64,000 nucleotides of DNA from Georgenia thermotolerans (GTDB taxonomy: Bacteria; Actinomycetota; Actinomycetes; Actinomycetales; Actinomycetaceae). The notes beneath the pieces are model-generated. The model was not told the origin of the DNA. It worked only from the letters and a program-made list of their open reading frames with translations, and did no database searches. Where the stretch lies: positions 62,001 to 126,000 of the forward strand of contig NZ_VUKF01000002.1 of assembly GCF_009193185.1 (NCBI RefSeq), given 5' to 3'. Shown here one piece after another: positions 8,533-51,054 of this stretch. The translations under genes were made by a program, and so were the position numbers. Positions within the stretch are counted from its first letter, which is position 1. Each line of letters begins with the position of its first letter.

Positions 8533-8595
8533 GAGACGTCAAGTCGGGCGTGAGACGTCAAGTCGGGCGCGAGAGGTCAAGTTGTGCGCGAGAGG
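8533..8595 (+). repeat. 19-bp tandem repeat array, copy A
   Basis: Three units of 19 bp with core GAGACGTCAAG (8533, 8552, 8571; the third reads GAGAGG), then a partial fourth. The array starts 17 nt after the era stop behind a C-rich spacer. The same unit recurs at 31435, 33167, 40981 and 51006. Confidence 0.9.
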
Positions 8596-8690
8596 ACGCG
8601 CGCGTCGACGTCCTGCGGCCCCGCGTAGCGGGCGAGCGCCGTGTGGGCGGCGCCACCGACCCCGCTCCCGGGCGGTGTGGCGCGACCAAC

Positions 8691-8696
8691 TACCCT
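8691..8696 (+). promoter_or_regulatory. Leaderless -10 box for hydrolase gene
   Basis: TACCCT ends 7 nt before GTG 8704, and no Shine-Dalgarno is visible. This fits leaderless transcription. Confidence 0.55.
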
Positions 8697-8703
8697 TGCC
8701 CAG

Positions 8704-10206
8704 GTGAGATACCGGCGGCTGGCGGCGACCATCGTCGTCGTCCTGCTTCTCGGGCTGGTCGGCACCGTGGCCGGCCCCGGGTGGAACCCGCGTCCGCTGG
8801 GCCACACCATCGTCCCGGAGACCGCCGACACCGCCATCGGCTCGGACGCGCTGACCCCGCCGGTGGGCACCTTCGAGGTCCACCGGCAGGTCGTGGACGT
8901 CCGGGTGGAGGACGGGGTGAGCGTCAAGGCCACGATCGCCTCGCCGGTCGGTGCGCGCGGCCTGCGCCCCGGCGTGGTCTTCATGCACGGCGCGGGCACC
9001 GCGACCCACGAGAACTTCGCCGACATCACCACCGACCTGGCCAGCGCCGGCATCGTCACGCTGGTCCCGGACAAGCGCACCGACACCTACACCACCCGCG
9101 ACCGCAACTATGTCGCCATGGCGGCCGACTACCTCGACTCGCTCGAGGTGCTGCGCCGGTGGCCCGGCGTCGACCCCGGCCGGGTCGGCGTCTACGGCGA
9201 GAGCGAGGGCGCCATGTCGGCCCCGATCGCCGCCGCCCACAACCCCGACGTCGCCTTCGTCGTCCTCGTCTCCGCGCCGGTGCTGCCCATCCGCGAGCAG
9301 GGCGCCTTCGCCGCCGACACCTACCTGCGCGAGGTCGGCGTCCCCGACCGGCTCCTGCGGGCCATCCCGCGGCTCGTCGGCGGGCAGTTCCCCGGCGGCG
9401 GCTTCGAGTACTTCGACTTCGACGTCTCGCCCTACCAGCAGCGCATGCGGCAGCCGGTCCTCCTGGTCTACGGCACCGCGGACGCCTCGATGCCGATCGT
9501 CCAGGGGGCGGAGCGGCTCCTCGCCGACCTCGCGGCCGCCCACAACGACCAGTACACGATCCGGTACTACCACGGGGCCAACCACGGCATCCGGGTCGAC
9601 GGCCAGCTCGCCCCGCACTTCACCGAGGACCTCGCCCGGTGGGTGCAGGGGCTGCCGGACACGGCGTCCGCCGAGCCCCGCGTCGCCGGGGCGGAGCCGG
9701 TCCAGCAGTTCCGCGCCGGCCCCGTCGCCAACCCGCGCTGGTACGCCAGCGGCGACATGATCGTGCTGACCCTCGTCGCCGGCTTCGGCCTGCTCGTCCT
9801 CGGGCTGCTCGCCTGGGCGGGCGGCCAGCTCCCGCGCCTGTGGGGCCGGCCGGCCTCGACGACGGCGCCCCCCGTGGGTCGCTACACCCTCGCCCTGGCC
9901 CTCGCCACGGTGGCCACCTGGGTGATCTTCGTGGCCTACCTCGCCGGCGTGGCCGACCTCGCGCTGAACTACCGCACCAACGCCCTGTTCGTCCAGGGCG
10001 GATGGATCGCCGTGCAGGCCGTGGGCATCCTCGCCGCGACGATGCTCGTGCTCACCGTGACCGCCGCGTGGCGGCAGGCCCGGGCCCGGCGCGGCAGCGT
10101 GGTGATGGGCCGCGTCGGCTGGCTCGCCGTCGCCTGCACCGTGCTCGGCTGCGTGGTGCTCCTGCTCTCCGCCGCCTACTGGGGCGTGTACCCGGCGGTG
10201 CCCTGA
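8704..10206 (+). CDS. Membrane-anchored alpha/beta hydrolase
   Basis: A 500-residue protein. An N-terminal membrane anchor or signal (residues 8-24) is followed by an alpha/beta hydrolase domain with the nucleophile elbow GESEG (Ser at about 167), an oxyanion-type segment VVFMHGAGTATHENF, and a likely catalytic His in YYHGANHGIRVDG. The C-terminal 150 residues hold four hydrophobic helices. The domain resembles dienelactone hydrolase/prolyl oligopeptidase-type enzymes; the substrate is unknown and it should act outside the membrane. It opens the region inserted between era and leuA. The GTG start is taken from the upstream TACCCT box and the anchor. Confidence 0.8.
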   Translation: MRYRRLAATIVVVLLLGLVGTVAGPGWNPRPLGHTIVPETADTAIGSDALTPPVGTFEVHRQVVDVRVEDGVSVKATIASPVGARGLRPGVVFMHGAGTATHENFADITTDLASAGIVTLVPDKRTDTYTTRDRNYVAMAADYLDSLEVLRRWPGVDPGRVGVYGESEGAMSAPIAAAHNPDVAFVVLVSAPVLPIREQGAFAADTYLREVGVPDRLLRAIPRLVGGQFPGGGFEYFDFDVSPYQQRMRQPVLLVYGTADASMPIVQGAERLLADLAAAHNDQYTIRYYHGANHGIRVDGQLAPHFTEDLARWVQGLPDTASAEPRVAGAEPVQQFRAGPVANPRWYASGDMIVLTLVAGFGLLVLGLLAWAGGQLPRLWGRPASTTAPPVGRYTLALALATVATWVIFVAYLAGVADLALNYRTNALFVQGGWIAVQAVGILAATMLVLTVTAAWRQARARRGSVVMGRVGWLAVACTVLGCVVLLLSAAYWGVYPAVP

Positions 10207-10344
10207 CGTCGCCGGCCCGCCGGCCCGCCGCCCGGCCGCCCCGGTGCGTGACGCCCGGGATCCGGGCCGCGCCACGGACGGACGGCCGGGGAACGGAACC
10301 GGAAGGCGTGGCACGCTGTGACCCAACCGATCGAGAGGGAACGG

Positions 10345-11115
10345 ATGCTGACCCAGTGGGGCGTGGCCACCGACACCGGCGGCCGCCGCAGCGTCAACGA
10401 GGATGCGGTGCTGGCCCAGCCGCCGGTCTTCGTCGTCGCCGACGGCATGGGCGGGCACGCCCGCGGGGACATGGCGTCCCGGACGGTCGTCGCGGCCCTG
10501 CGCGAGCTCGCCGAGCGGGCCGAGCCGATCGGCAGGTCCGACGTCGAGGACGCCCTCGACCGGGCCGCGCAGGAGATCCGCGCCACGATGGCCGCCGACA
10601 CCGCCACCCCGTTCGCCGGCCCCGAGTCCGTCGCCGGCACCACGGTCGCCGGTGCCGTGCGCACCGAGCGCGACGGCGTCGCGCACTGGCTCGTCCTCAA
10701 CGTCGGCGACTCCCGGGTGTACCGCTTCGCCGAGGGCGAGCTGCGCCAGGTCAGCGTCGACCACTCCCTCGTGCAGGAGATGGTCGACGCCGGCACGCTC
10801 TCCCCGGCGGCGGCGCGCACCCACCCGCGGCGCAACGTCATCACGCGCGCCGTGGGCACCAGCGACGAGGTCGAGGTCGACTTCTGGCTGCTGCCCATCG
10901 AGCCGGGCGAGCGGCTGCTGCTGTGCACCGACGGGCTGATCGGCGAGCTCGAGGACACCGAGATCGCCGAGGTGCTCGCGAACGAGCCGGACCCGTCCCG
11001 GGCCGCCGAGGAGCTGCTGCGCCGCGCCGTGACCGGGGGAGCCAACGACAACGTCACCGTCGTGGTGGTCGACGCCGTGGCCGACGACGCGCCGGGCGGT
11101 GGAGCCGCGGCGTGA
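10345..11115 (+). CDS. PP2C-family Ser/Thr protein phosphatase
   Basis: A 256-residue soluble PP2C phosphatase. Metal-binding and catalytic motifs are all present: SVNEDAVL, VADGMGGHARG, LNVGDSRVYRF, LCTDGLIGELED and GGANDNVTVVVV. It lacks the membrane tail of PstP, so it is a cytoplasmic paralogue. I prefer ATG 10345, preceded by GAGAGGGA and giving the usual start close to the first strand; GTG 10318 adds nine residues. Its stop overlaps the GTG of the FHA gene, and the kinase follows, so it probably reverses that kinase's phosphorylation. Confidence 0.93.
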   Translation: MLTQWGVATDTGGRRSVNEDAVLAQPPVFVVADGMGGHARGDMASRTVVAALRELAERAEPIGRSDVEDALDRAAQEIRATMAADTATPFAGPESVAGTTVAGAVRTERDGVAHWLVLNVGDSRVYRFAEGELRQVSVDHSLVQEMVDAGTLSPAAARTHPRRNVITRAVGTSDEVEVDFWLLPIEPGERLLLCTDGLIGELEDTEIAEVLANEPDPSRAAEELLRRAVTGGANDNVTVVVVDAVADDAPGGGAAA

Positions 11116-12275
11116 TCGGGCACGAGTACCGGCCGGGGACCTGGATCGCCCTGGTCGCGGAGGGCGGCGTCGCGCTCGTTCACCCCGACCTCGGGGACCG
11201 GGCGGCGCGCGAGCTCTGGGAGGCGGCCCGGGCGGGCGCGCGCCTCGGCGACCGGCTGGGCCGGCTCGCCGCGCGGGACGCGGCGGAGCTGCCGGCCTTC
11301 GCCGTGGTCGAGGCGCACCCGGAGGGCCTGCGCGTGCTCGTCCGCGGCGACGTCGTCGTCACGGTCGGCTCCGCGCGCCTGACCGGCGAGGGGCACGCCC
11401 CTGTTCACGACGTGGTGCTGCCAGGGGAGGCCGGCTTCGCGATGACAGCCGCCGGGGCGCCGCCGGACGCCAACCCCGCGGCCACCTGGTTGCCGCTCGC
11501 CGGCGGGATCGTGCACGCCACGCAGGTGCGCACCTTCGACACCCGCGAGCACCGGCAGGTGGGGGCGCACGCGCTCCGAGGCGCCGATGCAGAGCCGGGT
11601 CTTCCGAGCTCGCCGGCGCTGGCGGCGCTCGTCGGAGCTGGTGGGGGCGACGCTCTGGAGGACACCGCGATCGAGCCGGCGGAGGACGACGCCGACCTCA
11701 CCTGGGCGAGCGAGCCGGGGGCGCCGCTCGCCGGCGGTCTCGCGGTCCCGACCCGCGCCAGCGGTCTCCCTGGCGCGACCTACACGATCGACATCCCGGA
11801 GGAGGACCGCCTGCCCGGACCGATCGGGCCTGCGGCGCGGACCGCCGACGCCCCGGAACCGCCCCTTCCTCCCGCCGTCGCGCAGGTGCCCGGACCGCGC
11901 CCGCCGTCCGCGGCACTCGCCGCGGAGCCCCTCCTCGAGCTCGTCCTCCCCACGGGTCCGCGCGTGCCGGTCACCGGCCCGGTCGTCCTCGGCCGGGCGC
12001 CGGAAGCCGGCCGCGTCCCGGGCGACGAGGTCCCCCGGCTGGTCGCGGTGCCCAACCCCGAGCGCGGCGTCTCCACCACGCACGCGGAGGTCCGCCCGGC
12101 CGGCGACTACGTCGTCGTCACCGACCTCGGCTCGACCAACGGCACCGTCCTGCACCTGCCCGGCCGGCCGCCGCAGCGGCTGCGGCCCGGCACGGGCGTC
12201 CCCGTCCCACCGGGCGGGGTGGTCGAGCTCGGTGCGGAGGTGCGCGTCGTCGTCGAGCGCGCGGAGGTGCGATGA
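11112..12275 (+). CDS. FHA domain protein
   Basis: A 387-residue protein. The first 120 residues form an unassigned domain (starting IGHEYRPGTWIALVAEGG). A long Pro/Ala-rich acidic linker follows, and a C-terminal FHA domain (about 280-375) keeps the phosphothreonine-binding residues: LGRAP, VSTTHAEV with the SxxH pair, and GSTNGT. It should recognise a phosphorylated partner, most simply the kinase encoded next. No membrane segment is evident. GTG overlaps the phosphatase stop and its own stop overlaps the kinase ATG. Confidence 0.88.
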   Translation: MIGHEYRPGTWIALVAEGGVALVHPDLGDRAARELWEAARAGARLGDRLGRLAARDAAELPAFAVVEAHPEGLRVLVRGDVVVTVGSARLTGEGHAPVHDVVLPGEAGFAMTAAGAPPDANPAATWLPLAGGIVHATQVRTFDTREHRQVGAHALRGADAEPGLPSSPALAALVGAGGGDALEDTAIEPAEDDADLTWASEPGAPLAGGLAVPTRASGLPGATYTIDIPEEDRLPGPIGPAARTADAPEPPLPPAVAQVPGPRPPSAALAAEPLLELVLPTGPRVPVTGPVVLGRAPEAGRVPGDEVPRLVAVPNPERGVSTTHAEVRPAGDYVVVTDLGSTNGTVLHLPGRPPQRLRPGTGVPVPPGGVVELGAEVRVVVERAEVR

Positions 12276-13813
12276 GCCCGAAGCGCGCCCCCGGCCGGCC
12301 GCCGGAGCTCCCGGGCTACTCCTACGAGCGGCTGCTCGGCTCCGGCGGCTTCGCCGACGTCTACCTCTACACCCAGCTCATGCCGCGCCGTCCGGTCGCG
12401 GTCAAGGTGCTCACCGCCGAGGCGCTGCGCGAACAGACGCCCGAGCAGCTCCTCGCCGAGGCCGACCTCATGGCCCGGCTGTCCTCCCACCCCTCGATCG
12501 TGGGCGTCCACGACGCCGGTCGGGCCCGGGACGGGCGGCCCTACCTCGTCATGCAGTACTGCCCGCTGCCCAGCCTCGCAGAGCGCGTCAAGGCCCGCCC
12601 TCTCGGAGTGCCCGAGGCACTCAGCATCGGGGTGCGCCTGGCGGGCGCCGTCGAGACCGCGCACCGCGCGGGCATCGTCCACCGGGACATCAAGCCCGCG
12701 AACGTCCTCACCACCGAGTACGGACGGCCGGCCCTGACCGACTTCGGCATCGCGGGAGCGGCGGGGGAGGCCGCCTCCGACGGCGCGGGCGTCTCCGTGC
12801 CGTGGGCGCCGCCGGAGGCGCTCGACGGCGAGGGGACCGGCGGGGTCGCCGGGGACGTCTACTCCCTCGGGGCCACGATCTACACCCTGCTCGCCGGCCG
12901 CGCCCCCTTCCACCGCCCCGCGGGGCCGAACACCCGCCTCGACCACATGACCCGGATCCGCCGGGACCCGGTCCCGCCCCTGGACCGGGCCGACGTCCCC
13001 CGCTCGCTCGAGGCGGTGCTCGCCCGCGCCATGGCGAAGCAGCCGGCCCGCCGTTACGCCTCGGCCCTCGACCTGGCCCGGGCCCTTCAGGCCGTGGAGC
13101 AGGAGCTGCGCCTGGCCATGACGGACGTCGAGGTGCCGGACACCTCCTGGATGGCCGCGGCTCCGCCCGCCGAGGCCGCCGCGCGCACGGTGGTGCACGG
13201 CGTCGTCACGGTGGACCCCGCGGGCGCAGACTCCACGCGGACCCGTGCGGTGCGCACCGCCGACGGCGACCTCGACCGCCGCCCGGACGCCACGGTCCCC
13301 GCCGGTGCGGCAGGAACGGTCCGGCCCGCCGACGAGGGCCCCACCGTGCGACGTCCGACCACCGGGCCGGAGACGACCGCCGGCAGGCACACGGCCTCAC
13401 CGCCCCGGCGGCGGGGACGGGTGCTGGTGGCGGCCGGGGTCGTGGCCGCGGTCCTGCTCGGCGGCGTCGTCGGCGCCGGGGCGCTGCGCGGGGACCCCGG
13501 GTCGGAGCCAACGACCCCGGCCGGCACCGCGATCCCCATCCCCGAGCGGGTGGCCGCCCCGGTGGGACTGAGCGGCGCCCGCGACGGCGACACGGTCGCC
13601 TTCACCTGGCAGGCGCCCGCCGAGCACGCCGGCGCCACCGGGCTGAGCTACACCTGGCAGCGCGCCGAACCGGGTGCCGAGCAGCAGGTGCACGTGGCGA
13701 GAGAGCCCGGCGTCATCCTCGACGACGCCGCCGGCCAGGTGTGCCTCGCCGTCAAGGTGCGCCTGCCCAACGGCACGACCTCGACCGAGCCTGCCGTCGC
13801 GTGCGTGCCGTGA
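12272..13813 (+). CDS. Transmembrane Ser/Thr protein kinase (PknB-like)
   Basis: A 513-residue Hanks-type kinase. Residues 15-280 hold the kinase fold: LLGSGGFADVY loop, VAVKV lysine (about 44), HRDIKPANV (137-145), DFGIAG (157-162), and a P+1 loop VPWAPPEA. All catalytic residues are present. A Thr/Pro-rich juxtamembrane linker leads to one membrane helix at about 383-403 and a short external domain of about 105 residues resembling a fibronectin-type fold (PVGLSGARDGDTVAFTWQAP). PASTA repeats are absent, so it does not look like the cell-wall sensing PknB. It overlaps the FHA gene by 4 nt. Confidence 0.92.
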   Translation: MSPKRAPGRPPELPGYSYERLLGSGGFADVYLYTQLMPRRPVAVKVLTAEALREQTPEQLLAEADLMARLSSHPSIVGVHDAGRARDGRPYLVMQYCPLPSLAERVKARPLGVPEALSIGVRLAGAVETAHRAGIVHRDIKPANVLTTEYGRPALTDFGIAGAAGEAASDGAGVSVPWAPPEALDGEGTGGVAGDVYSLGATIYTLLAGRAPFHRPAGPNTRLDHMTRIRRDPVPPLDRADVPRSLEAVLARAMAKQPARRYASALDLARALQAVEQELRLAMTDVEVPDTSWMAAAPPAEAAARTVVHGVVTVDPAGADSTRTRAVRTADGDLDRRPDATVPAGAAGTVRPADEGPTVRRPTTGPETTAGRHTASPPRRRGRVLVAAGVVAAVLLGGVVGAGALRGDPGSEPTTPAGTAIPIPERVAAPVGLSGARDGDTVAFTWQAPAEHAGATGLSYTWQRAEPGAEQQVHVAREPGVILDDAAGQVCLAVKVRLPNGTTSTEPAVACVP

Positions 13814-13921
13814 GCGCAGCCCGTGTGCCGTCGGTCACCCCTGGCGGACACGCCGCTTCGATGACGGCCGCGACGGCAGGTGGGCTGGTAGGTCCTGGTG
13901 TGAAGAGGGAAGGAGGGACGC

Positions 13922-14623
13922 ATGGGCATGCAGCTGGAGTTCTGCGGTGAGTGGTTCCGGGTCGCCGAGGACGAGCCGTTCCTCATCGGGCGCGAAGGCG
14001 TCCTCGAGATCGACGACAACCCCTACCTGCACCGGCGCTTCCTCACGGTGACCCGCCACGACGACCTGTGGTGGCTGGAGAACCACGGCTCGCGGCTGTC
14101 GGCGACGGTGGCGGACCTGGAGGGCAACACCCAGGCCTGGCTCGCCCCCGGCGCGCGTCTCCCGCTCGTCTACGCCCGGACCACCGTGCTGTTCACCGCG
14201 GGCCCGACGACCTACGAGCTCACCCTCGTCAACGACGAGCCCGCCTATCTGCCCACCCAGCCGGCCGAGGAGGTCGAGGTGGGGGAGACCACCATCGGCC
14301 CGGTCACGCTGACGGAGAGCCAGCGCCTGCTCATCCTGGCGCTGGCCGAGCCGGTGCTCAGCGGGCGCGGCTCGACGGCGACGATCCCCACCTCCGCCGA
14401 GGCCGCGCAGCGGCTGGGCTGGGCCCTCACGCGCTTCAACCGCAAGCTCGACAACGTCTGCGACAAGCTGCACCGCTACGGCGTGCGGGGCCTGCGCGGC
14501 GGTCCGAGCAAGCTGGCGGTCAACCGGCGCGCCCGCCTCGTCGAGCACGCCGTCGCCTCCCGGCTCGTCGTGCCCGAGCAGCTGCCCCTGCTGGACGCCG
14601 CCCGCGACGTCGCCGACGACTGA
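13922..14623 (+). CDS. FHA-like protein with winged-helix C-terminus
   Basis: A 233-residue protein. Residues 1-100 resemble an FHA fold: FLIGREGVLEI keeps the GR motif, but the SxxH and NG positions are replaced (NPYLHRRFLTV, ENHGSRLS), so phosphothreonine binding is doubtful. Residues about 125-215 look like a winged helix (LTESQRLLILALAEP, TSAEAAQRLGWALTRFNRKL). A GGGAAGGAGG-type Shine-Dalgarno precedes ATG 13922. It lies 108 nt downstream of the kinase, so it may be co-transcribed. It could be a transcription factor or adaptor of this module; that is inference. Confidence 0.82.
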   Translation: MGMQLEFCGEWFRVAEDEPFLIGREGVLEIDDNPYLHRRFLTVTRHDDLWWLENHGSRLSATVADLEGNTQAWLAPGARLPLVYARTTVLFTAGPTTYELTLVNDEPAYLPTQPAEEVEVGETTIGPVTLTESQRLLILALAEPVLSGRGSTATIPTSAEAAQRLGWALTRFNRKLDNVCDKLHRYGVRGLRGGPSKLAVNRRARLVEHAVASRLVVPEQLPLLDAARDVADD

Positions 14624-14729
14624 CCGCGCGGGACGTCTGACTCGCGCGCTCGGCACAGGCGGCCAGGCGAAGGCGGCGCATCGCGGCAGTCGCGGACGCT
14701 GACGGGCGGCGCGGGGCCCGCTCCGGCGC

Positions 14730-15536
14730 CTACAGCACCGCCTGCAGGAAGGCCTGTGTCCGTTCCTCGCCAGGGTCGCTGAACATCACTCCGGGCGGCG
14801 CGTCCTCCACGATCCGTCCCTGGTCGAACATCAGCACGCGGTCGGAGACCTCGGCGGCGAACTGCATCTCGTGGGTGACGATGAGCATCGTGATGTCGGT
14901 GCTGCGCGCGACGTCCCGCAGCACGCCAAGCACCTCACCGACCAGCTCCGGGTCGAGGGCGGAGGTGACCTCGTCGAGCAGCAGGATCTCCGGGTCCATC
15001 GCGAGGGCGCGTGCGATGGCGACGCGCTGCTGCTGCCCGCCCGAGAGGCGCGTGGGGTGCGCGTGGGCCTTGTCCGCCAGCCCCACCTGGTCGAGCAGCT
15101 CGCGCGCCCGCCGCTCCGCCTCGCCCTTGGACCGTCCGAGCACGTGGACGGGCGCCTCGGTGATGTTCTCCAGCACCGTCATGTTGGGGAAGAGGTTGAA
15201 CTGCTGGAAGACCATGCCGATCTTGGTCGTCAGCCGGGCGACGTCCTTCGGTCGGCGCTCGACCCGGCGACCGCCCCGCAGCTCGTGGGTCAGCGGATCG
15301 CCGTCGACGTAGATGAAGCCGTCGGTGAGATGCTCGAGGGTCATCACGAGGCGCAGGATCGTCGTCTTCCCGGAGCCCGAGGGGCCGATGAGGGTGACGC
15401 GTTCCCCCTTCGCCACCTCGAAGTTCAGGCCGTCCAGCACCGTGTGGTCGCCGAACCGCTTGACGACGTTCTCGAACCGCAGGGCGGGGAGGACGGCCGT
15501 GCCGGCGGGCCCCCTGGTGGTATCAGTAGCGGGCAA
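14730..15536 (-). CDS. ehuA: Polar amino acid/ectoine-type ABC transporter ATPase
   Basis: A 268-residue ATPase of the polar amino-acid uptake group. Walker A GPSGSGKTT is at residues 51-59, signature LSGGQQQRVAIARAL at about 163, Walker B ILLLDEVTSALD at about 188, and the H-loop IVTHEM follows. The TTG start overlaps the end of the permease gene by 14 nt, the last step of a four-gene operon (binding protein, two permeases, ATPase). The two permeases resemble EhuC and EhuD, so ectoine/hydroxyectoine is the best substrate guess. It could equally serve another amino-acid-like solute. Confidence 0.85.
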   Translation of the reverse strand: MPATDTTRGPAGTAVLPALRFENVVKRFGDHTVLDGLNFEVAKGERVTLIGPSGSGKTTILRLVMTLEHLTDGFIYVDGDPLTHELRGGRRVERRPKDVARLTTKIGMVFQQFNLFPNMTVLENITEAPVHVLGRSKGEAERRARELLDQVGLADKAHAHPTRLSGGQQQRVAIARALAMDPEILLLDEVTSALDPELVGEVLGVLRDVARSTDITMLIVTHEMQFAAEVSDRVLMFDQGRIVEDAPPGVMFSDPGEERTQAFLQAVL

Positions 15537-16173
15537 GGCGTGCTTCCAATCTCCTGAGGAGGACCGACGTGGGGTAGCTGGCCGCGAGGAAGATCAGGCC
15601 GGCCAGGGTGAAGGCCTCGACGTAGACGAACGTGCGAGACCCGTACACCTCCGCCCGGCTCACCATCTCGACCACGAAGATGACCGTGAGGAACGGCGTG
15701 TCCTTGAACATCGAGATCACCCACGTGCCGAGCGCCGGGACCGTGGTGCGCAGGGCCTGCGGGATGATGACCTTTCCCCAGGTGCGCGCGGGCGACATGC
15801 TGAGCGCGGTGGCCGCCTCCCACTGCCCGCGCGGCACGGCGTCGATGCCCGAGCGGTAGACCTCGGCCATGTAGGTGGCGTAGTGGATCCCCAGGACGGC
15901 GATGCCGATGGTCAGGGCGTCCAGGTCGTTGAACGTGTAGTAGACGAAGAGCAGCTGGATGACGATCGGCGTCATCCGGACGAACTCCATGACCCAGTGA
16001 ACGGGCCTGGCGATCCACGCCGGCGCCAGGCGGCGGACGAGGGCGACCACCAGCCCGAGCACGGCCGCGATGAGGGAGCCCAGCACGGTCGCGACGAGCG
16101 TGACCTGGACGAACGCCTCCAACAGCTGCGGCAGGACATCGGCCGCACGGTCCCAGCTCCAGATGTCTCTCAT
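15523..16173 (-). CDS. ehuD: ABC transporter permease, EhuD-like
   Basis: A 216-residue permease with five predicted membrane helices. The EAA loop is GQWEAATALSMSPARTWGKV, the coupling helix of the HisM/EhuD group. The FVRMTPIVIQLLFVYY and FKDTPFLTVI segments are typical of ectoine-type EhuD. Its ATG overlaps the stop of the preceding permease (ATGA). It should form the membrane pore together with that permease. Confidence 0.83.
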   Translation of the reverse strand: MRDIWSWDRAADVLPQLLEAFVQVTLVATVLGSLIAAVLGLVVALVRRLAPAWIARPVHWVMEFVRMTPIVIQLLFVYYTFNDLDALTIGIAVLGIHYATYMAEVYRSGIDAVPRGQWEAATALSMSPARTWGKVIIPQALRTTVPALGTWVISMFKDTPFLTVIFVVEMVSRAEVYGSRTFVYVEAFTLAGLIFLAASYPTSVLLRRLEARLARY

Positions 16174-16892: not shown

Positions 16893-16894
16893 CG

Positions 16895-17800: not shown

Positions 17801-17897
17801 GGTCCCTTCGGTCGGACGAGGCAGAGCCTCCCGGGTCCGCCGCCGTCCTGGCGTGCGGCACCGGACGGGTCACCCCGAGTGGTGATGGCGCCCGGCC

Positions 17898-31434: not shown

Positions 31435-31491
31435 GAGACGTCAACTTGGGCGCGAGACGTCAAGTCGGGCACGAGACGTCAACTCCGGCGC
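31435..31491 (+). repeat. 19-bp tandem repeat array, copy B
   Basis: Three 19-bp units (31435, 31454, 31473) with core GAGACGTCAA, starting 13 nt after the leuA stop behind a short C-rich spacer. Variation between units is confined mostly to the last seven positions. Confidence 0.9.
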
Positions 31492-31567: not shown

Positions 31568-31573
31568 GGACGC

Positions 31574-39735: not shown

Positions 39736-39736
39736 G

Positions 39737-40963: not shown

Positions 40964-40980
40964 CCCCGACCGCCCCCGGC

Positions 40981-41123
40981 GAGACGTCAAGTTCTCCACA
41001 TCATCTTCGGAGGAAAACTTGACGTCTCACGACGCACGTGACATCTCGACGCCAGCTTGACGTCTCGCGACGCACGTGACGTCTCGACGCCAACTTGACG
41101 TCTCGATGCCAACTTGACGTCTC
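40981..41123. repeat. 19-bp repeat array D with inverted copy (hairpin)
   Basis: One forward unit (GAGACGTCAAGTT, 40981-40993) faces a reverse copy (41016-41028), making a perfect 13-bp stem extended by CTCC/GGAG inside. Five further reverse units of exactly 19 bp follow (41029-41047, 41048-41066, 41067-41085, 41086-41104, 41105-41123). The array lies between the convergent dusB and glucosidase genes and should act as a two-sided terminator or structured RNA. Confidence 0.92.
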
Positions 41124-41135
41124 ACGGGGGAGGGG

Positions 41136-42896
<1,761 letters not shown>

Positions 42897-43244: not shown

Positions 43245-44273
43245 TCAGATCAGCGTGCCGGTGAGTCCGGGCGCCGCCGCCGTGGACCCGCGCACGATGA
43301 GCTCGGGCACGAACAGCAGGTCGCTGCGCGGCACCGCCTCCCCGCCGATCTCGGCCACCAGCGTGGTCACGGCCGCCTGGCACATCGCGCCGACCGGCTG
43401 GCGGATGGTGGTCAGCGGCGGGTCGGTGAAGGCGATGAGCGCCGAGTCGTCGTAGCCGACCACGGACAGGTCCTCCGGCACCCGCAGCCCGCGCGAGCGG
43501 GCCGCCCGGACCACGCCGAGCGCCATCAGGTCCGAGCCGCAGATGACGGCGGTGCACCCGGCGTCGAGGAGCATCGAGCCGGCGCTGAGCCCGCCCTCGA
43601 CGGTGAACAGGGTGGTCACCACGGCCGGGTCGGCGACCTCGAGGTAGGTCGCCATGGCCTCGCGGAACCCGTCGCGCTTGCGCTGGGCCGGCACGAACCG
43701 GTCCGGCCCGACGGCCAGCCCGACCGTGCGGTGGCCCTGGGAGGCGAGGTGGCGCACGGCGAGGTCCATGCTGCCGCGGTCGTCGGTGGAGAACGACGGC
43801 GCGTCGATGGCCGGGTTGTGCCCGTTGAGCAGCACGAACGGCAGCCCGCGCTCCCGCAGCCGCAGGTACCGGGAGGGGTCGGCGTGGGTGTCGGCGTGCA
43901 GCCCGGAGACGAACACGATGCCGTCGACGCCGTGCTCGAGGAGCATCTCGACGTAGGCGTCCTCGGTGGTCCCGCCGGGGGACTGCGTGCACAGCAGCGG
44001 CGTGTAGCCGTCGATGGCGAGCATCGACTCCACCGCCTGCGCGAAGGCCGGGAACACCGGGTTGGACAGCTCGGGCACCACGAGGCCGACCAGGCCGGCC
44101 GAGCGCGCGCCGAGCTTGTCGGGGCGCTCGTAGCCGAGCAGGTCCAGCGCGGCGAGCACCGCCCGGCGGGTCTCGGCGGCCACGCCGGGCTTGCCGTTGA
44201 GCACGCGCGAGACAGTCGCGGTGCTGACGCCGGCCTGCTCGGCGACGTCGGTGAGCCTGGTGCGCCCTTGCAT
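43245..44273 (-). CDS. LacI-family transcriptional regulator
   Basis: A 342-residue repressor. The N-terminal HTH and hinge are TRLTDVAEQAGVSTATVSRV followed by LNGKPGVAAETRRAVLAAL. The periplasmic-binding-like sugar domain includes VGLVVPELSNPVFPAF and LSVVGYDDSALIAFTDPPLT. ATG 44273 is chosen for its AGGACCAGG context and the usual short lead into the HTH; an upstream start adds 14 basic residues. It is divergent from malE and most likely binds the TGCAA palindrome in the malE promoter, responding to a maltose-like sugar. Confidence 0.92.
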   Translation of the reverse strand: MQGRTRLTDVAEQAGVSTATVSRVLNGKPGVAAETRRAVLAALDLLGYERPDKLGARSAGLVGLVVPELSNPVFPAFAQAVESMLAIDGYTPLLCTQSPGGTTEDAYVEMLLEHGVDGIVFVSGLHADTHADPSRYLRLRERGLPFVLLNGHNPAIDAPSFSTDDRGSMDLAVRHLASQGHRTVGLAVGPDRFVPAQRKRDGFREAMATYLEVADPAVVTTLFTVEGGLSAGSMLLDAGCTAVICGSDLMALGVVRAARSRGLRVPEDLSVVGYDDSALIAFTDPPLTTIRQPVGAMCQAAVTTLVAEIGGEAVPRSDLLFVPELIVRGSTAAAPGLTGTLI

Positions 44274-44341
44274 CCTGGTCCTACTTCTTGCTCGGGTGTG
44301 CGCGTCCCTGCGCACGATGGAAACTGATGCCTGAAAGTTAC

Positions 44342-44379
44342 TGCAAGTGGTTGCACCGGCGCCACCACTCTTCTACTGT
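44342..44379 (+). promoter_or_regulatory. malE promoter with LacI-type operator
   Basis: TTGCAC (44351-44356), a 17-nt spacer and TACTGT (44374-44379) form a good sigma-70-like promoter. The palindrome TGCAAGTGGTTGCA (44342-44355) overlaps the -35 box, the right place for repression by the divergent LacI protein. Confidence 0.75.
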
Positions 44380-44464
44380 CGAACCCATCCGAAATTGCCC
44401 TTGAGCAGCGTTGACGGGGCATTTCGCGGATGAAACGGACAACATTCTCTTACAGGAGCTGAAG

Positions 44465-45700
44465 ATGCGACGAAGCATCACCCTCGTGGCCGCGGTCGGT
44501 GCGACCCTGGCCCTGGCCGCCTGCTCGGGCGGCTCCACCGACGACTCCTCCGCCAGCCCGGCCGCGGAGGAGACCAGCGCCGCCGCCGACGGCGGCTCCC
44601 TGACCATCTGGGTCGACGAGACGCGCCAGCCGGCCGTGGAGGCCGCCGCGGCGAAGTTCGAGGAGGAGACCGGCGCCAGCGTCGAGACCGTCCTCAAGAA
44701 CTTCGACGACATCCGCGCCGACTTCAACGCCCAGGTGCCCACCGGCAAGGGCCCGGACATCACCGTCGGCGCCCACGACTGGCTCGGGGAGCTCACCGCG
44801 AACGGCGTGGCCGCCCCGATCGAGCTGGGCGACAAGGCCGCGGAGTTCGAGCCGGTGGCCGTGGAGGCGTTCAGCAAGGACGGCCAGGTGTACGGCCTGC
44901 CCTACGCCGTCGAGAACATCGCCCTCATCCGCAACACCGCCCTCGCCGCGGAGGCGCCGGCGACCTGGGACGACGCCGTCGCGGCCGGCAAGGCCGCGGG
45001 CACCACCTACCCGATCCTGCTGCAGATGGGCGAGGAGGGGGACCCGTACACGATGTACCCCCTGCAGACCTCCTTCGGCGCCCCGGTGTTCACCCAGAAC
45101 GACGACGGCACGTACAAGCCCGAGCTGGCGCTGGGCGGCGAGGCGGGCAACGCCTTCGCGCAGTTCCTCGCCGCGCAGGGCGCCGCGGGCGTGCTCGACC
45201 CGGCCATCACCTACGACATCGCCGTCGAGGCCTTCGCCAAGGGCGAGTCGCCGTTCATCGTCGGCGGGCCGTGGATGATCGCCAGCTTCAAGGACCTCGA
45301 CCTGGCCATCGACCCCATCCCGAGCGCCGGCGGCCAGCCCGCCCAGCCGTTCGTCGGCGTCGCCGGCTTCTACGTCAACGCCCAGAGCGACAACTCCCTG
45401 CTCGCCAACGACTTCCTCGTCAACTACATGGCCACCGAGGAGGCGCAGCTGGCCCTCTACGAGGCCGGCGACCGCCCGCCCGCCCTGATCGCCGCGGCCG
45501 ACGCCGCGTCCGAGAACCCCGTCACCGCCGGGTTCCGGGACGTCGGCGCCGACGCCCTGCCGATGCCGTCCATCCCCGAGATGGGCTCGGTGTGGGAGTT
45601 CTGGGGCGTGACCGAGGCCGCCATCGTCAGCGGCGCCCAGGAGCCCGTCGCGGCCTGGGAGAAGATGGTCGCCGACATCCAGGGCGCGCTCGGCGCCTGA
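44465..45700 (+). CDS. malE: Maltose/maltodextrin-binding lipoprotein
   Basis: A 411-residue extracellular solute-binding protein, family 1. The signal peptide ends in the lipobox LALAAC (about residue 20), followed by a Ser/Ala linker. LTIWVDETRQPAVEAAAAKFEEETG, GPDITVGAHDWLGELTANG and YGLPYAVENIALIRN match MalE-type proteins. ATG 44465 follows a CAGGAG Shine-Dalgarno. It heads the malEFG operon behind a LacI operator. The ligand is inferred from the neighbours (glucosidase, MalF with a P2-like loop). Confidence 0.92.
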   Translation: MRRSITLVAAVGATLALAACSGGSTDDSSASPAAEETSAAADGGSLTIWVDETRQPAVEAAAAKFEEETGASVETVLKNFDDIRADFNAQVPTGKGPDITVGAHDWLGELTANGVAAPIELGDKAAEFEPVAVEAFSKDGQVYGLPYAVENIALIRNTALAAEAPATWDDAVAAGKAAGTTYPILLQMGEEGDPYTMYPLQTSFGAPVFTQNDDGTYKPELALGGEAGNAFAQFLAAQGAAGVLDPAITYDIAVEAFAKGESPFIVGGPWMIASFKDLDLAIDPIPSAGGQPAQPFVGVAGFYVNAQSDNSLLANDFLVNYMATEEAQLALYEAGDRPPALIAAADAASENPVTAGFRDVGADALPMPSIPEMGSVWEFWGVTEAAIVSGAQEPVAAWEKMVADIQGALGA

Positions 45701-45706
45701 CCGACC

Positions 45707-45740
45707 CGAGGGCGTGCGGCCTGGCGGCCGCACGCCCTCG
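45707..45740 (+). terminator. Intercistronic hairpin malE-malF
   Basis: CGAGGGCGTGCGGCC (45707-45721) pairs perfectly with 45726-45740 around the loop TGGC: a 15-bp stem 7 nt after the malE stop, with no T tract. Such hairpins stabilise or partly terminate the message so that the binding protein is made in excess over the permeases. Confidence 0.75.
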
Positions 45741-45833
45741 CCGCACCCCGCTGCCGGCGCCCCGCCGCCCCTCCGGGCGGCGACGTCGGCGCCACCCTGG
45801 CCGGCCGCGACGCCGCGGCCCGACGGAGGACCG

Positions 45834-47444
45834 ATGACCCCCCAGCCCCTGCCCACCATCCCGCGCCGCCGGTGGCGGCCCGACCGGCGCGGCCCGCTCT
45901 CCCACGCGCGGAACTTCGCGCCGGGCTTCCTCGTGAAGCTGTTCCTCGTGGGCCTCGTCGACGCGCTGGGCGTCTACGTGGTGCTGGCCGCCTGGGCGCA
46001 GGAGTCCTACGGGATCCTCTGGGCGATGGTGGGCCTGCTCCTGGTCACCAACTACGTGTACTTCGGCCGCCGGATGCTCGCGGCCAAGTACCTGCTGCCG
46101 GGCCTGGCCTTCCTGCTGGTGTTCCAGATCTTCGTCGCCGTCTACACCGCCTACGTCGCCTTCACCAACTACGGCGACGGGCACAACTCCACCAAGGCCC
46201 ACGCCGTCGAGGCGCTGCTCGTCCAGAACGAGCGCCGGGTGGAGGGCTCCGACGCCTACCCGCTGACCGTCCTGGCCGACGGCGAGCAGCTCGCCTTCGC
46301 CGTCGTCACCCGGGACGGCGAGGTGCGCGTGGGCAGCGCGGACGCCCCGCTCGAGACCGTCCACGACGCCACGACGGCCGACGGGACCGTCACCGCGGTG
46401 CCGGGCTACCAGGTGCTGGACCGGCAGGAGATCCTGCGGCGGCAGGCCGACGTGACCGCCCTGCGGGTGCCGGTCTCCGACGACCCGGCCGACGGGTCGG
46501 TCCGCACCCAGGACGCGCGCAACGGGTACGTCTACCTCTCCACCCTGGAGTACGACGAGGCCGCCGACACCATGACGGACACGGCCACCGGGACCGTCTA
46601 CCGGCCCAACGACGAGGGCCAGTTCGAGGCCGCGGACGGCTCGGTGCTGCCGGTGGGGTGGCGCGTCGTCGTCGGGTTCGAGAACTTCGTGACCGCGTTC
46701 GGCGACGAGCGGTACGCCCAGCCGTTCGTGAAGATCCTGGTGTGGAACTTCGCGCTGGCGCTGCTCTCCGTCGTCAGCACCTTCCTCCTCGGGCTCTTCC
46801 TGGCCATCGTGCTCAACGACGGGCGGGTGCGCGGGCGGCGGCTCTACCGGACCCTGCTGATCCTGCCGTACGCCTTCCCCTCCTTCCTCGCCTTCCTGAT
46901 GTTCCGCGGGATGCTCAACGAGCGGTTCGGGTTCGTCAACCAGGTGCTGCTCGGCGGCGCCGACGTCCCGTGGCTGACCGACCCGTGGCTGGCGAAGGCG
47001 GCGGTGCTGCTGGTCAACCTGTGGGTGGGCTTCCCCTACATGTTCCTCATCTGCACCGGCGCGCTGCAGTCGATCCCGGCCGACGTCATGGAGGCCGCCG
47101 CGATCGACGGCGCCGGCCGGTTCACCACCTGGCGCCGGATCACCCTGCCGCTGCTGCTGGTCTCCACCGCGCCGCTGCTCATCTCCTCCTTCGCCTTCAA
47201 CTTCAACAACTTCAGCCTGATCTACATGCTCACCGGCGGGGGGCCGCGCTTCGCCGACGCCTCCGTGCCCCTGGGGCACACCGACATCCTCATCTCGATG
47301 GTGTACTCGGTCTCCGGCGTGGACGGTTCGGCCCCGAAGAACTACGGGCTGGCCAGCGCGCTGTCGATCGTCATCTTCCTCATCGTCGGCCTGATCTCCG
47401 CCCTCGCGTTCCGGCAGACGCGCAAGCTCGAGGAGTACAACTGA
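45834..47444 (+). CDS. malF: Maltose ABC transporter permease MalF
   Basis: A 536-residue permease with about eight helices. Two N-terminal helix pairs are followed by a large external domain (about residues 110-285), equivalent to the P2 loop that docks MalE in enteric MalF. The EAA loop is EAAAIDGAGRFTTWRRITLPLL (split as EAAAIDGAG and RRITLPLL, about residue 420). The ATG has a CGGAGGA Shine-Dalgarno. The length and the P2-like domain favour maltose/maltodextrin over other sugar permeases. Confidence 0.9.
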   Translation: MTPQPLPTIPRRRWRPDRRGPLSHARNFAPGFLVKLFLVGLVDALGVYVVLAAWAQESYGILWAMVGLLLVTNYVYFGRRMLAAKYLLPGLAFLLVFQIFVAVYTAYVAFTNYGDGHNSTKAHAVEALLVQNERRVEGSDAYPLTVLADGEQLAFAVVTRDGEVRVGSADAPLETVHDATTADGTVTAVPGYQVLDRQEILRRQADVTALRVPVSDDPADGSVRTQDARNGYVYLSTLEYDEAADTMTDTATGTVYRPNDEGQFEAADGSVLPVGWRVVVGFENFVTAFGDERYAQPFVKILVWNFALALLSVVSTFLLGLFLAIVLNDGRVRGRRLYRTLLILPYAFPSFLAFLMFRGMLNERFGFVNQVLLGGADVPWLTDPWLAKAAVLLVNLWVGFPYMFLICTGALQSIPADVMEAAAIDGAGRFTTWRRITLPLLLVSTAPLLISSFAFNFNNFSLIYMLTGGGPRFADASVPLGHTDILISMVYSVSGVDGSAPKNYGLASALSIVIFLIVGLISALAFRQTRKLEEYN

Positions 47445-47445
47445 C

Positions 47446-48366
47446 ATGGCCACCGACCTCGCCCGCGCCGCCGACCGCACCGCCGGCCGCGCCCCGGGCC
47501 ACCCCGCCGCGAACCGCATGGGCCGGCGCCGCTGGTTCTCCGAGATCGGCTGGCGCCACGTCGTCGGCGTCCTCGCCGTCGTCTTCGCCGCCTTCCCGCT
47601 GGTCTACGTCCTCTCGGCGTCGCTGAGCGAGGGCGGCACGCTGACCGGGTCCAACGCCCTCTTCGAGGAGGTGAGCCTGGGCAACTACGCCGCCCTCAAC
47701 GACTCGCCGTTCTGGACGTGGATGCTCAACACCCTGTTCATCGGCGGGACGACGGCGGTCGGCACCGTGCTCATGGGCGCCGCGGCGGCCTACGCCTTCT
47801 CCCGCTTCCGGTTCACCGGCCGGCGAGCCGGCCTCACGGCGATGCTCGTCATCCAGATGTTCCCGCAGATGCTCGCCTTCATCGCGATCTTCCTGCTGCT
47901 GCTCGGGCTCGGGAACGTCGTGCCGATCCTCGGGCTGAACAGCAAGCTCGCGCTGATCTGCGTCTACCTGGCCGGGGCGATGGGCGTGAACACCTTCCTC
48001 ATGTACGGGTTCTTCAACACCGTCCCCAAGGAGCTCGACGAGGCAGCGCGGATCGACGGCGCCAGCCACGCCCAGATCTACTGGACGATCGTGCTGCGGC
48101 TCGTGGCGCCGATGCTGGCCATCGTGGGCCTGCTGTCGTTCATCTTCACCCTCAACGAGTTCATCATCGCCCGGGTGGTGCTGCAGTCCGAGCGCAACTG
48201 GACCTTGGCGGTGGGGCTGTACGGGTGGGTCTCGGAGCTCCTCGAGGCGAACTGGGGGCTGTTCGCCGCCGGCGCGGTCATCTCCGCGCTGCCGGTGCTC
48301 GTGCTGTTCCAGCTCCTCCAGCGCTTCATCGTCGGGGGGCTGACGACCGGGTCGGTCAAGGGCTGA
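47446..48366 (+). CDS. malG: Maltose ABC transporter permease MalG
   Basis: A 306-residue permease with six helices. The EAA loop DEAARIDGASHAQIYWTIVL is at about residues 200-220, and the C-terminal QRFIVGGLTTGSVKG matches MalG, where the end reaches into the MalF/MalE pore. It begins 1 nt after the malF stop, so translation is coupled. No ATPase gene (malK/msiK) follows; the ATPase must come from elsewhere on the chromosome. Confidence 0.92.
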   Translation: MATDLARAADRTAGRAPGHPAANRMGRRRWFSEIGWRHVVGVLAVVFAAFPLVYVLSASLSEGGTLTGSNALFEEVSLGNYAALNDSPFWTWMLNTLFIGGTTAVGTVLMGAAAAYAFSRFRFTGRRAGLTAMLVIQMFPQMLAFIAIFLLLLGLGNVVPILGLNSKLALICVYLAGAMGVNTFLMYGFFNTVPKELDEAARIDGASHAQIYWTIVLRLVAPMLAIVGLLSFIFTLNEFIIARVVLQSERNWTLAVGLYGWVSELLEANWGLFAAGAVISALPVLVLFQLLQRFIVGGLTTGSVKG

Positions 48367-48391
48367 GCGCCCTCCCCGTCACCGGCCGCGC

Positions 48392-49603
48392 TCAGGACAT
48401 CGCCAGCCACACCGTGGTGTCCGGCGGCACCGTCGCCTCCCCGCCCACCGGCGCGGGCAGGTCCGCGCTGGCGTGGAGGATCTCCCGCTCGGCGGGGACG
48501 ACCACCGCCTCGACGCCGAGGTTGACCAGCACGAGCACCTCGCGGTTGAGGAAGGCCAGCGTGCCCGCAGGGGCGTCGATCCAGCCCACCGGCCCGGTGC
48601 CCAGCCGCAGCTCGTCGCGCAGGCGCAGCCCGCGGCGGTAGCGCTCGAAGCGGGAGTCGGCCCGGCCCTTCTGCGCGGCGACCGCCGCGGCGGTCGCCCG
48701 CACGGCCGCGGCGACGTCGCCCGCCTGGCGCAGGCCCACCGCCTCGCCCAGGTGCAGGTAGGCGGTGCCGGGCAGGGCGAGCATGAGCGCCGCGGCCGCG
48801 TCGTGGCGGCGCTCCAGGGCGGCGGCGTCGAGGTCGCCCCACTCGGCGGGGGCGGACAGCGCCGCGGTCGCCAGCGTCCAGCCCGCCGGCGCCCCGACCG
48901 GGTCGCGCAGCGTGTAGGCGTCGGTGATCGCGGCCCGCAGCGCCTGCGGGCGCCACGGGGTGACGACGAGGCGGTCGTCGCGGGTGACGTGGAGCCAGTC
49001 CTCGTGCAGGTGGGCGGCCAGGGCGGCGCGGTCCCGGGCGGTGCCGCCGCCGGTGAGGATGACGTCCTCGCCGTGCTCGGCGATGAGCGCGTGCAGCGCA
49101 CCGAGCTCGATGCCCGCGTGGCTGTGCGGGCCGAGCGGGGGCACCGGGCGGGTCGCGGAGATGAGGTCGATGCCGTCGATGCCCCGGTGCAGCCACGCGG
49201 TGCACCGGGCGAGGTGCCAGGCGGCGGCGTCGGTCTGCGGCGGGGCGTCGGTGCCGGCCAGGGCGACGAGGACCTTGATGCCGCGCTGGTGGGCGCGGCG
49301 CACGAACGCCTCGACGACCCCGCGCGCCGGCTCGGTGCCGGGGTCCAGGCCCGGGCAGTGCACCTCGATGGCGTCAGCGCCCAGCCGCGCCACGTGCGAG
49401 ATCTCCGCCGTCAGCGCCTCCAGGCCGGCCAGGTCCGCCTCGCCGCGCACCTGGAGGACGACGGCGTGCTGCCACCAGGCGGTGGGCCGCCGGGTGCTGC
49501 GGTGGACCACGGTGGTCGTGGTGACGTCGCCGAGCCGGGGCGCCCGCCGGTCGGGCGCCTGCTCGCCGGGCGTCGCCTGCGCCGTCGTCTCGTGGTCCGT
49601 CAC
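48392..49603 (-). CDS. Catalytically inactive GH13 paralogue
   Basis: A 403-residue protein that aligns with the GH13 glucosidase encoded at 41136-42896: same start of the barrel (WWQHAVVLQV), same helix LGADAIEV, same ending VPPDTTVWL. The catalytic regions are all lost: region II reads GIDLISAT (nucleophile Asp to Ile), region III ILTGGGT (Glu to Gly) and region IV WTLATAALS (Asp lost), while region I is VLVALAG. The frame is intact over 400 codons. It is convergent with malG. A sugar-sensing or scaffolding role is inference. GTG 49603 follows CACAAT by 6 nt. Confidence 0.82.
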   Translation of the reverse strand: MTDHETTAQATPGEQAPDRRAPRLGDVTTTTVVHRSTRRPTAWWQHAVVLQVRGEADLAGLEALTAEISHVARLGADAIEVHCPGLDPGTEPARGVVEAFVRRAHQRGIKVLVALAGTDAPPQTDAAAWHLARCTAWLHRGIDGIDLISATRPVPPLGPHSHAGIELGALHALIAEHGEDVILTGGGTARDRAALAAHLHEDWLHVTRDDRLVVTPWRPQALRAAITDAYTLRDPVGAPAGWTLATAALSAPAEWGDLDAAALERRHDAAAALMLALPGTAYLHLGEAVGLRQAGDVAAAVRATAAAVAAQKGRADSRFERYRRGLRLRDELRLGTGPVGWIDAPAGTLAFLNREVLVLVNLGVEAVVVPAEREILHASADLPAPVGGEATVPPDTTVWLAMS

Positions 49604-49647
49604 GGCGCCATTGTGGACCACGCGCCGCCGGCGCACCCGCCATCCCG

Positions 49648-49653
49648 TAGGCT
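49648..49653 (+). promoter_or_regulatory. Leaderless -10 box for dgt
   Basis: TAGGCT followed by 6 nt and GTG 49660; no Shine-Dalgarno is present. Confidence 0.6.
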
Positions 49654-49659
49654 CCTGGC

Positions 49660-50988
49660 GTGCCCCAGGAGTCGTCAGCCCTCGATCATGGCGTCCGGGC
49701 TCACGCCTCCGCCGAGCCCCGCCGCCCCGAGGCCTACACCCGCCGCGATCGCGAGCGCCGCTGGTCCGAGCCGGCGAAGAACCCCCGGCGGACGGCCTTC
49801 GAGCGGGACCGGGCGCGGGTGCTGCACTCCTCGGCGCTGCGCCGCCTGGGCGCCAAGACTCAGGTGCTGGGCCCGACCAGCGACGACTTCGTCCGCACCC
49901 GGCTGACCCACTCGCTCGAGGTCGCCCAGGTGGGTCGCGAGCTCGGCAAGGCGCTGGGCTGCGATCCCGACGTCGTCGACGCCGCGTGCCTCTCCCACGA
50001 CCTGGGCCACCCACCCTTCGGCCACAACGGCGAGCGGGCGCTGGACGAGGTCGCGGCGGGGATCGGCGGGTTCGAGGGCAACGCCCAGACCCTGCGGCTG
50101 CTGACCCGGCTGGAGCCGAAGACCGTCGGCGAGGACGGCACCAGCGCCGGCCTCAACCTCACCCGCGCGAGCCTGGACGCGGCCACCAAGTACCCGTGGC
50201 GCCGCGGCGACGGGCCACCCCGCGCCGACGGCACCCCGACGCCCAAGTTCGGCGTCTACGAGGATGACCTGCCGGTCTTCGACTGGCTGCGCGAGGGGGC
50301 CCCGGCCGGGCGGCGCTGCCTCGAGGCGCAGGTCATGGACCTCGCCGACGACATCGCCTACAGCGTGCACGACGTCGAGGACGCCATCGTCGGCGGCCGG
50401 GTGGACCTGGCGCGGCTGCGCCGGGCCGGGGAGCAGGAGCGCGTGGTCGGCCAGGTGCGGGCCTGGTACGACCCGCCGGTCGACGACGACACCCTCGGGG
50501 CGGCCCTCGACCGGCTGGTGGGCCTGCCGATCTGGATGCCCGCCTTCGACGGCTCGCGGCGCGACCTGGCCGGCATCAAGAACATGACGAGCCAGCTCAT
50601 CGGCCGGTTCTGCGGCGCGGCCGAGGCCGCCACCCGCGCGACCTACGGCGAGGGGCGGCTCACCCGCTACGCCGCCGACCTGGTCGTGCCGCCGGAGACG
50701 CTGGCCGAGATCGTCGTGCTCAAGGGCGTCGCGGCCCTGTACGTCATGGCCCCGCGCGAGCTCGAGCCGCTGTACCTGGCCCAGCGCACCATCATCTTCG
50801 ACCTGGTCGACGCGCTGCTGGAGACCGGCGACCGGCACCTCGAGCCGCCCTTCGTCGGTGACTTCCGCGCCGCGGCCGAGGACGCCGCGCGGCTGCGGGT
50901 GGTCGTCGACCAGGTGGCCTCGCTCACCGACACCTCGGCGAACCAGTGGCACGCCCGCCTGCGCGGGATGCTCTCGGAGGTCTTCTGA
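49660..50988 (+). CDS. dgt: Deoxyguanosinetriphosphate triphosphohydrolase-like protein
   Basis: A 442-residue HD-domain dNTP triphosphohydrolase. The metal site is seen in [20 protein letters not shown] and [19 protein letters not shown] (His-Asp at about 112-113), with a second His in [23 protein letters not shown] and [20 protein letters not shown] are family signatures. It hydrolyses dNTPs to deoxynucleoside and triphosphate. Its place directly before dnaG is conserved in Actinobacteria. The repeat array E begins 17 nt after the stop. Confidence 0.95.
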
Positions 50989-51005
50989 CGCCCCGCCCCG
51001 CCGGC

Positions 51006-51054
51006 GAGACGTCAAGTAGTGCGCGAGACGTCAAGTCCGTCACGAGGCGTCATG
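51006..51054 (+). repeat. 19-bp tandem repeat array, copy E
   Basis: Units at 51006 and 51025 with core GAGACGTCAAG, plus a partial third (GAGGCGTCATG, 51044). The array starts 17 nt after the dgt stop behind the C-rich spacer. Confidence 0.88.

What the first reader, a model, noticed from the sequence alone, without database searches (positions are those of the whole stretch)
8533..51054. A dispersed 19-bp tandem repeat family at gene ends
Units of exactly 19 bp with core GAGACGTCAAG followed by variable bases and GCGC occur in five arrays (8533, 31435, 33167, 40981, 51006), with two to six units each. All sit at gene ends. The core is kept while the other positions drift, suggesting selection or mobility. 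I know no described element with this sequence.
Basis: seen in the sequence. Interest (0 to 1): 0.85.

Follow-up and report, generated by a model that had tools for sequence, protein, structure and literature searches.

The report
Species-dialect tandem repeats after stop codons
An actinobacterium and some close relatives carry, just after the stop codons of dozens of genes, short runs of a 19-letter repeat that each species spells its own way; it resembles the known REP repeats but differs in build, and probably acts at the ends of messages, which remains to be tested.

Summary
GAGACGTCAAG occurs 97 times in the genome, the reversed control 0 times; 62 of 65 clusters hold two or more 19-bp units. 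Arrays start about 15-25 bp after stop codons, behind a C-rich leader; gaps between divergent genes are avoided. Two further genomes of the genus (G002, G007) show the same placement with their own spelling (dialect). A generic tandem pattern gives 195, 147 and 109 hits in the three rich genomes, but 3 and 7 in the sister species G003 and G001, and 6 hits in 5 of 247 other genomes of the order against 3 control hits. At orthologous gene ends arrays recur in the same place and orientation, in the host's own dialect. G003 shows decayed traces at 3 of 11 gaps and none at 8. No RAYT transposase in 9 genus genomes. Best reading: a REP-like 3'-UTR element kept by selection with a trans-acting partner; the function is inferred. 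A miniature mobile repeat is the main rival. New variant of a known kind.

The parts
8533..8589 (+). array A: three 19-bp units, 17 bp after the era stop codon; decayed trace at the same place in G003
8516..8532 (+). C-rich leader between the era stop codon and array A
31435..31491 (+). array B: three units, 13 bp after the leuA stop codon
33160..33197 (-). array C: two units in the convergent gap, overlapping the uppS stop codon; may form the last codons and stop of the minus-strand gene
   Evidence: G007 and G008 carry units of their own dialect at this place
40981..40999 (+). array D, plus arm: one unit 17 bp after the dusB stop codon, inverted to the next part across 10 bp
41010..41123 (-). 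array D, minus arm: six units, sense to the convergent glycosidase-like gene, 12 bp after its stop codon
51006..51062 (+). array E: three units, the last degenerate, 17 bp after the dgt stop codon and 54 bp before dnaG; G007 has an array at the same place
50989..51005 (+). C-rich leader between the dgt stop codon and array E

Best explanation
A REP-like 3'-UTR element: a C-rich leader of about 10-20 nt after the stop codon, then usually two to eight 19-nt units. In the transcript the units can pair (in G000 and G007 the near-palindromic GAYGTC of neighbouring units; in G002 and G007 GAG with CTC inside a unit), and facing arrays of convergent genes can form longer hairpins. It most likely acts at the 3' end of the message (end formation or protection from decay), with a trans-acting partner that reads the core GAGnnGTCA and changes or is lost between species. 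Shown: sequence, placement, orientation bias (clear in G007, weak in G000, absent in tandem gaps of G002), leader, dialects, shared positions, concerted change, decay in G003. Inferred: transcription of the arrays, pairing in vivo, the partner, the function.
For: In tandem gene gaps the median distance to the upstream stop is 17.5, 15 and 33 bp, to the downstream start 113, 96 and 151 bp (G000, G002, G007; n 36, 14, 19 runs). Divergent gaps: 7 of 110 gaps with arrays, 89 of 267 without, Fisher p 5e-9 (gaps of at least 50 bp in the loci). Sense to antisense in tandem gaps 25:12, 8:7, 17:2; in convergent gaps nearer the own-sense stop 17:6, 13:3, 15:3. Leader (sense runs 5-40 bp from a stop, n 38, 16, 26) 61-70% C and 17-21% G, against 40-45% C and 33-38% G in the 16 nt after array-less stops; the 16 nt before antisense arrays (n 14, 12, 3) have 50-56% C. 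Of 8 G000 array gaps with a syntenic G007 gap 5 have an array there, in matching orientation, against 0 of 7 array-less gaps (p 0.026). In the 6 shared locus pairs computed, units are closer to other loci of their own genome than to the same locus in the other species. Position 4, left free by the search, is A or G in 238 of 246 G000 units and 100 of 100 G007 units, but 102 of 153 in G002, where three GAG/CTC pairs stand at 91-99%. Sister genomes 195/3 and 147/7, with decayed traces in G003, suggest a partner lost.
Against: No transcript data. Arrays alone are weak RNA hairpins (mean z -0.58 to -1.19), and in G002 and G007 the other strand scores similarly. Compensated double changes are nearly absent (2, 1 and 0 cells). 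Whether arrays stand in for hairpin terminators is inconclusive: raw energies differ in G000 and G007 (p 0.011, 0.005; G002 p 0.17 with 2 array gaps), shuffle-corrected z does not (pooled p 0.19). Antisense runs in tandem gaps: 12 of 37, 7 of 15, 2 of 19. Some arrays lie inside called genes (6 of 75 runs). No partner was found or could be sought by whole-proteome comparison.
Confidence: 0.42

Rival explanations
1. Miniature mobile repeats: a selfish REP-like element copied by an unknown transposase, tolerated mainly behind stop codons; tandem units arise by slippage and dialects by bursts of copying.
For: REP elements have this placement, often provide stop codons and occur inside dnaE2 and ligase genes (PMC3733652, section 15); here too a unit supplies a stop codon (L151) and arrays lie in-frame in an error-prone DNA polymerase gene and in ligD. 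No significant trace at 8 of 11 syntenic gaps of the sister G003. Copy number differs sharply between sisters.
Against: No Y1 transposase (RAYT) match in 9 of 9 genus genomes. Orthologous positions with matching orientation in different dialects need replacement in place, not fresh insertion. C-rich leader also before antisense arrays. Target duplications were not tested.
Confidence: 0.3
2. Double-stranded DNA sites for an architectural or topology protein (gyrase, a nucleoid protein, or a polar transcription roadblock) placed where transcription ends.
For: Core with fixed 19-bp period; GAG-N10-CTC dyad in G002 and G007; gene-end placement and avoidance of divergent gaps; concerted change as expected of sites for one protein.
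Against: The C-rich leader and, in G007, the sense bias point to the transcript; in G000 the dyad is lost while inter-unit pairing is kept. No protein found.
Confidence: 0.2
3. Neutral debris: relics of one old repeat kept alike only by slippage.
For: Local amplification of odd variants, e.g. about six near-identical units in G002 L206; degenerate last units in several arrays.
Against: In the unit next to an exact core (not chosen for its sequence) each letter of GAG and GTCA is kept in 81-91 of 97 cases, while position 13 of that unit is random, though neighbours are partly tandem copies; placement bias in three genomes.
Confidence: 0.08

Closest known systems
REP elements / BIMEs (GTAG and CGTC families; PMC3733652: abstract, passages, sections 6 and 15 read)
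   Same: dispersed, high copy, close after the 3' ends of genes, in unidirectional and convergent gaps; may supply stop codons; intragenic copies in dnaE2 and ligase genes; inverted pairs
   Different: here direct 19-bp tandem units rather than one 8-9 bp stem with a small loop; no unpaired GTAG/CGTC tag in the predicted folds; no RAYT in the genus; C-rich leader; host dialects at shared positions
Neisserial DNA uptake sequences and their dialects (PMC3630211: passages read)
   Same: a short word with species dialects; inverted pairs linked with terminators
   Different: DUS are single 10-12-mers (length recalled), commonly intragenic, not 19-bp arrays; uptake not testable here
TAACTGA direct repeats of Beggiatoaceae (PMC4679880: passages read)
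   Same: mostly intergenic tandem direct repeats, two to six units, with an orientation bias
   Different: 7-bp unit, mostly upstream of start codons

Membership tests
REP element | 20-40 bp palindromic stem-loop unit | tested here: inconclusive
   a single unit was not folded alone; three GAG/CTC pairs inside the unit 20-40% in G000, 91-99% in G002, 90-97% in G007; all six GACGTC pairs between neighbours in 74% of 176, 13% of 115, 77% of 61 (consensus folds)
REP element | placement after coding regions, rare in divergent gaps | tested here: met
   (divergent avoidance not significant in G002 alone, p 0.13)
REP element | RAYT (Y1 transposase) in the genome (GTAG REPs; [quoted passage not shown]
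   PF01797: 0 of 9 genus genomes; control positive in 5 of 14
REP element | unpaired GTAG or CGTC tag at one end | tested here: inconclusive
   the units hold CGTC, TGTC or GGTC, but largely paired in the predicted consensus folds; CGTC REPs are reported with TGTC and CCTC variants too
DNA uptake sequence | takes part in DNA uptake | not testable with these tools
   -
intrinsic terminator | stable hairpin followed by a U run | tested here: not met
   array z -0.58 to -1.19; no T run after the five window arrays, by eye
IS ends / MITE | terminal inverted repeats with target duplication | not tested
   only indirect: no match of array sequence in plasmids or of the tandem pattern in viral contigs
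known structured RNA | match to an Rfam family | tested here: not met
   0 matches at gathering score in window 30000-52000; array A and other loci were not searched

The most novel reading that the evidence does not exclude
A genus-level 3'-end system in which one trans-acting factor reads a 19-nt array behind many genes; factor and arrays co-evolve into species dialects at fixed gene ends, and losing the factor lets all arrays decay together.
Probability: 0.3. Interest if true: 0.8.

Novelty: new variant of a known kind. Interest (0 to 1): 0.62.

Why it matters
Sister genomes that differ 195 to 3 and 147 to 7 in these arrays are a natural experiment on what gene-end repeats do and how dispersed short repeats change in concert. 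Comparing RNA 3' ends in rich and poor sisters would make the long-open question of REP-like function directly testable, and might reveal a marker of 3' ends in high-GC actinobacteria.

Tried and rejected
RAYT/REP membership. Plasmid or viral origin (no match). Other genera: exact tandem pair 0 of 50; with 1 mismatch 0 of 395; generic pattern 5 of 247 genomes with 6 hits, 3 control hits; orders other than the own were not searched. Arrays as replacement of hairpin terminators: inconclusive. RNA covariation: nearly no compensated changes. A likeness of GACGTCAAGTC to 16S rRNA is recalled, not tested; the G007 dialect loses it. The lone exact hits in a gene that looks like secE (recalled, not searched; L127, and L181 in G003) look like coding coincidence.

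Limits. Genes come from a codon-usage caller of my own. G000 loci were chosen by the exact core (97 of 97 sites), so arrays without it (e.g. C19:29184) are missing from the placement counts. For G002 31 regions and for G007 27 were fetched by repeat position, from capped lists. The core is part of the search word, so its constancy there is partly chosen. Gene-level sharing (7 genes G000-G007, 4 G000-G002, 2 G002-G007) rests partly on regions fetched by synteny, and my expected 0.5-0.8 per pair is a hand estimate; one search is the test free of that choice, but it leaves out site C, where G007 also has arrays. drop sites without two matching flanks; one search also gaps over 1200 bp. One search computed concerted change for 6 locus pairs only (five of the 10 pairs, and L139/L250). 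The output was cut in the middle.

Full report
What is there. The window holds five gene-end arrays with a 19-bp period. It lies in a 4.64-Mb draft genome, G000. Its Era protein is closest, among the loci returned, to Oceanitalea stevensii and Georgenia satyanarayanai (81% identity; records very near the window may be left out there), so the organism is probably a Georgenia or near it. The exact core occurs 97 times in the genome, the reversed control 0 times. A weight-matrix scan of the regions round all 97 sites gave 65 clusters with 261 units, 3 of the clusters single units.

Placement. With my own codon-usage gene caller, 50 runs of G000 have a sense gene upstream; 40 of the 50 begin 4-29 bp after its stop, five begin inside its last codons, and five lie 37-551 bp off. 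In L151 a unit supplies the stop codon. With a stricter definition (70 runs in G000, 38 in G002, 39 in G007, 0 in reversed controls), distances to the upstream stop are much shorter than to the downstream start in all three genomes, and divergent gaps are avoided in the pooled data (7 of 110 against 89 of 267); in G002 alone this is not significant (p 0.13). The orientation bias in tandem gaps is strong in G007 (17:2), weak in G000 (25:12, p 0.047) and absent in G002 (8:7). A C-rich, G-poor leader precedes sense arrays and, somewhat weaker, antisense arrays.

Facing arrays. In five G000 loci (window 40981/41010, L109, L116, L122, L126) the innermost units face each other across exactly 10 bp with largely complementary arms; in five other facing pairs the gap is 32-106 bp.

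Dialects. The generic pattern GAGnnGTCA-N10-GAGnnGTCA gives 195 (G000), 147 (G002), 109 (G007), 7 (G001), 3 (G003) and 0 in G004, G005, G006 and G008, with one control hit in all nine. Unit consensuses: G000 GAGACGTCAAGTAGGGCGC, G002 GAGACGTCAAGTCCTCCGC, G007 GAGATGTCATCTCCTCCGC, with about 13 of 19 bases shared between loci of a genome. In G007 most of the arrays printed have two units, the second ending after GAGATGTCATC, which makes a roughly 28-bp imperfect palindrome (consensus fold). G008 has a relative, GAGCGGTCAAGTACTCGCA, outside the strict 19-bp pattern. In the order sample outside the genus the pattern is near control: 6 hits in 5 of 247 genomes, 3 control hits in 3.

History. A tree from 23 proteins, rooted at the midpoint, gives ((G008,(G007,(G000,G003))),((G005,G006),(G004,(G002,G001)))), every fork with SH-aLRT 99 or 100. 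Rich and poor genomes are thus sisters twice. Among gaps fetched by synteny, 5 of 8 G000 array gaps also have arrays in G007, in matching orientation, against 0 of 7 array-less gaps (p 0.026); for G002 2 of 7 against 0 of 6 (p 0.46); G003 0 of 8, G008 0 of 8, G001 0 of 4, G004, G005 and G006 0 of 5 each by this count. G003, the closest relative, was then tested by alignment against shuffles at 11 gaps (13 runs): three show decayed copies, at L139:3005-3080 (0 of 300 shuffles as good; three units still in register), L154:6236-6349 (0 of 300, partly over a called gene) and window 8533 (1 of 300); the other eight gaps, among them the window sites B, C, D and E, show no significant trace. In the 6 shared locus pairs computed, units resemble other loci of their own genome more than the same locus in the other species: concerted evolution.

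Structure. In G000 neighbouring units keep all six pairs of GACGTC in 74% of 176 neighbours and have lost the GAG/CTC pairing inside the unit (20-40%); G002 is the reverse (13%, and 91-99%); G007 has both (77%, and 90-97%). Position 4 is A or G in 238 of 246 units of G000 but in 102 of 153 of G002. So each of the three dialects keeps one way of pairing, and A-to-G at position 4 keeps it as a G-U pair in the sense RNA only (inference). This favours an RNA element but is no proof: compensated changes are nearly absent, and a DNA-binding protein would fit as well.

Genes. Upstream genes in the window are era, leuA, uppS, dusB and dgt; elsewhere, among the few looked at, a pseudouridine synthase, a tyrosine recombinase, IspD, a DivIC-like and a NUDIX protein. 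No functional class stands out in this small set. Six of 75 runs lie inside called genes: two in an error-prone DNA polymerase (L148), one in ligD between two domains (L132), one behind the domains of a HAD-like hydrolase (L118), one lone unit in L127 and one in L153 not examined. The REP paper names dnaE2 and a DNA ligase among genes holding REPs (PMC3733652, section 15), a close parallel.

Comparison. The whole picture is nearest to REP elements, but the unit is a direct 19-bp repeat, no tag stands unpaired in the predicted folds and no RAYT is present, so I call it REP-like and do not file it as REP. Searches for prior description were made; only open PubMed Central papers are held. That REPs close to stop codons affect translation is recalled, not read here.

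Noticed in passing
L186 (G006), site orthologous to window 33160: A different gene-end repeat, ACGACGAGGG at a period of roughly 22 bp, after uppS in G006, with a weaker version in G005; possibly an analogous family with another core.
   Followed up: partly
L030, about 3925-4000; L029 same place: Downstream of era in G. satyanarayanai an inverted pair GAGTACGCACCTACGGTC / GACCGTAAGTGCGTACTC stands beside a reverse-strand gene that looks like a DUF559-type nuclease (recalled, not searched); Oceanitalea has a similar layout.
   Followed up: no
L189 (G001), after dgt: About 1.2 kb inserted between dgt and dnaG in G001, looking like an IS110-type transposase gene (recalled, not searched).
   Followed up: no
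L206 (G002): One array drifted to GAGGGGGCACTTCCTCC and amplified about six times: local slippage spreads variants.
   Followed up: no
L139:7618-7898: An array in a divergent gap recurs in the same orientation in G000, G002 and G007, with a related word in G008; an unannotated transcript may end there.
   Followed up: partly
window 55212-58861: A gene-poor stretch with tRNA-Asn and tRNA-Met and only weak gene calls.
   Followed up: no
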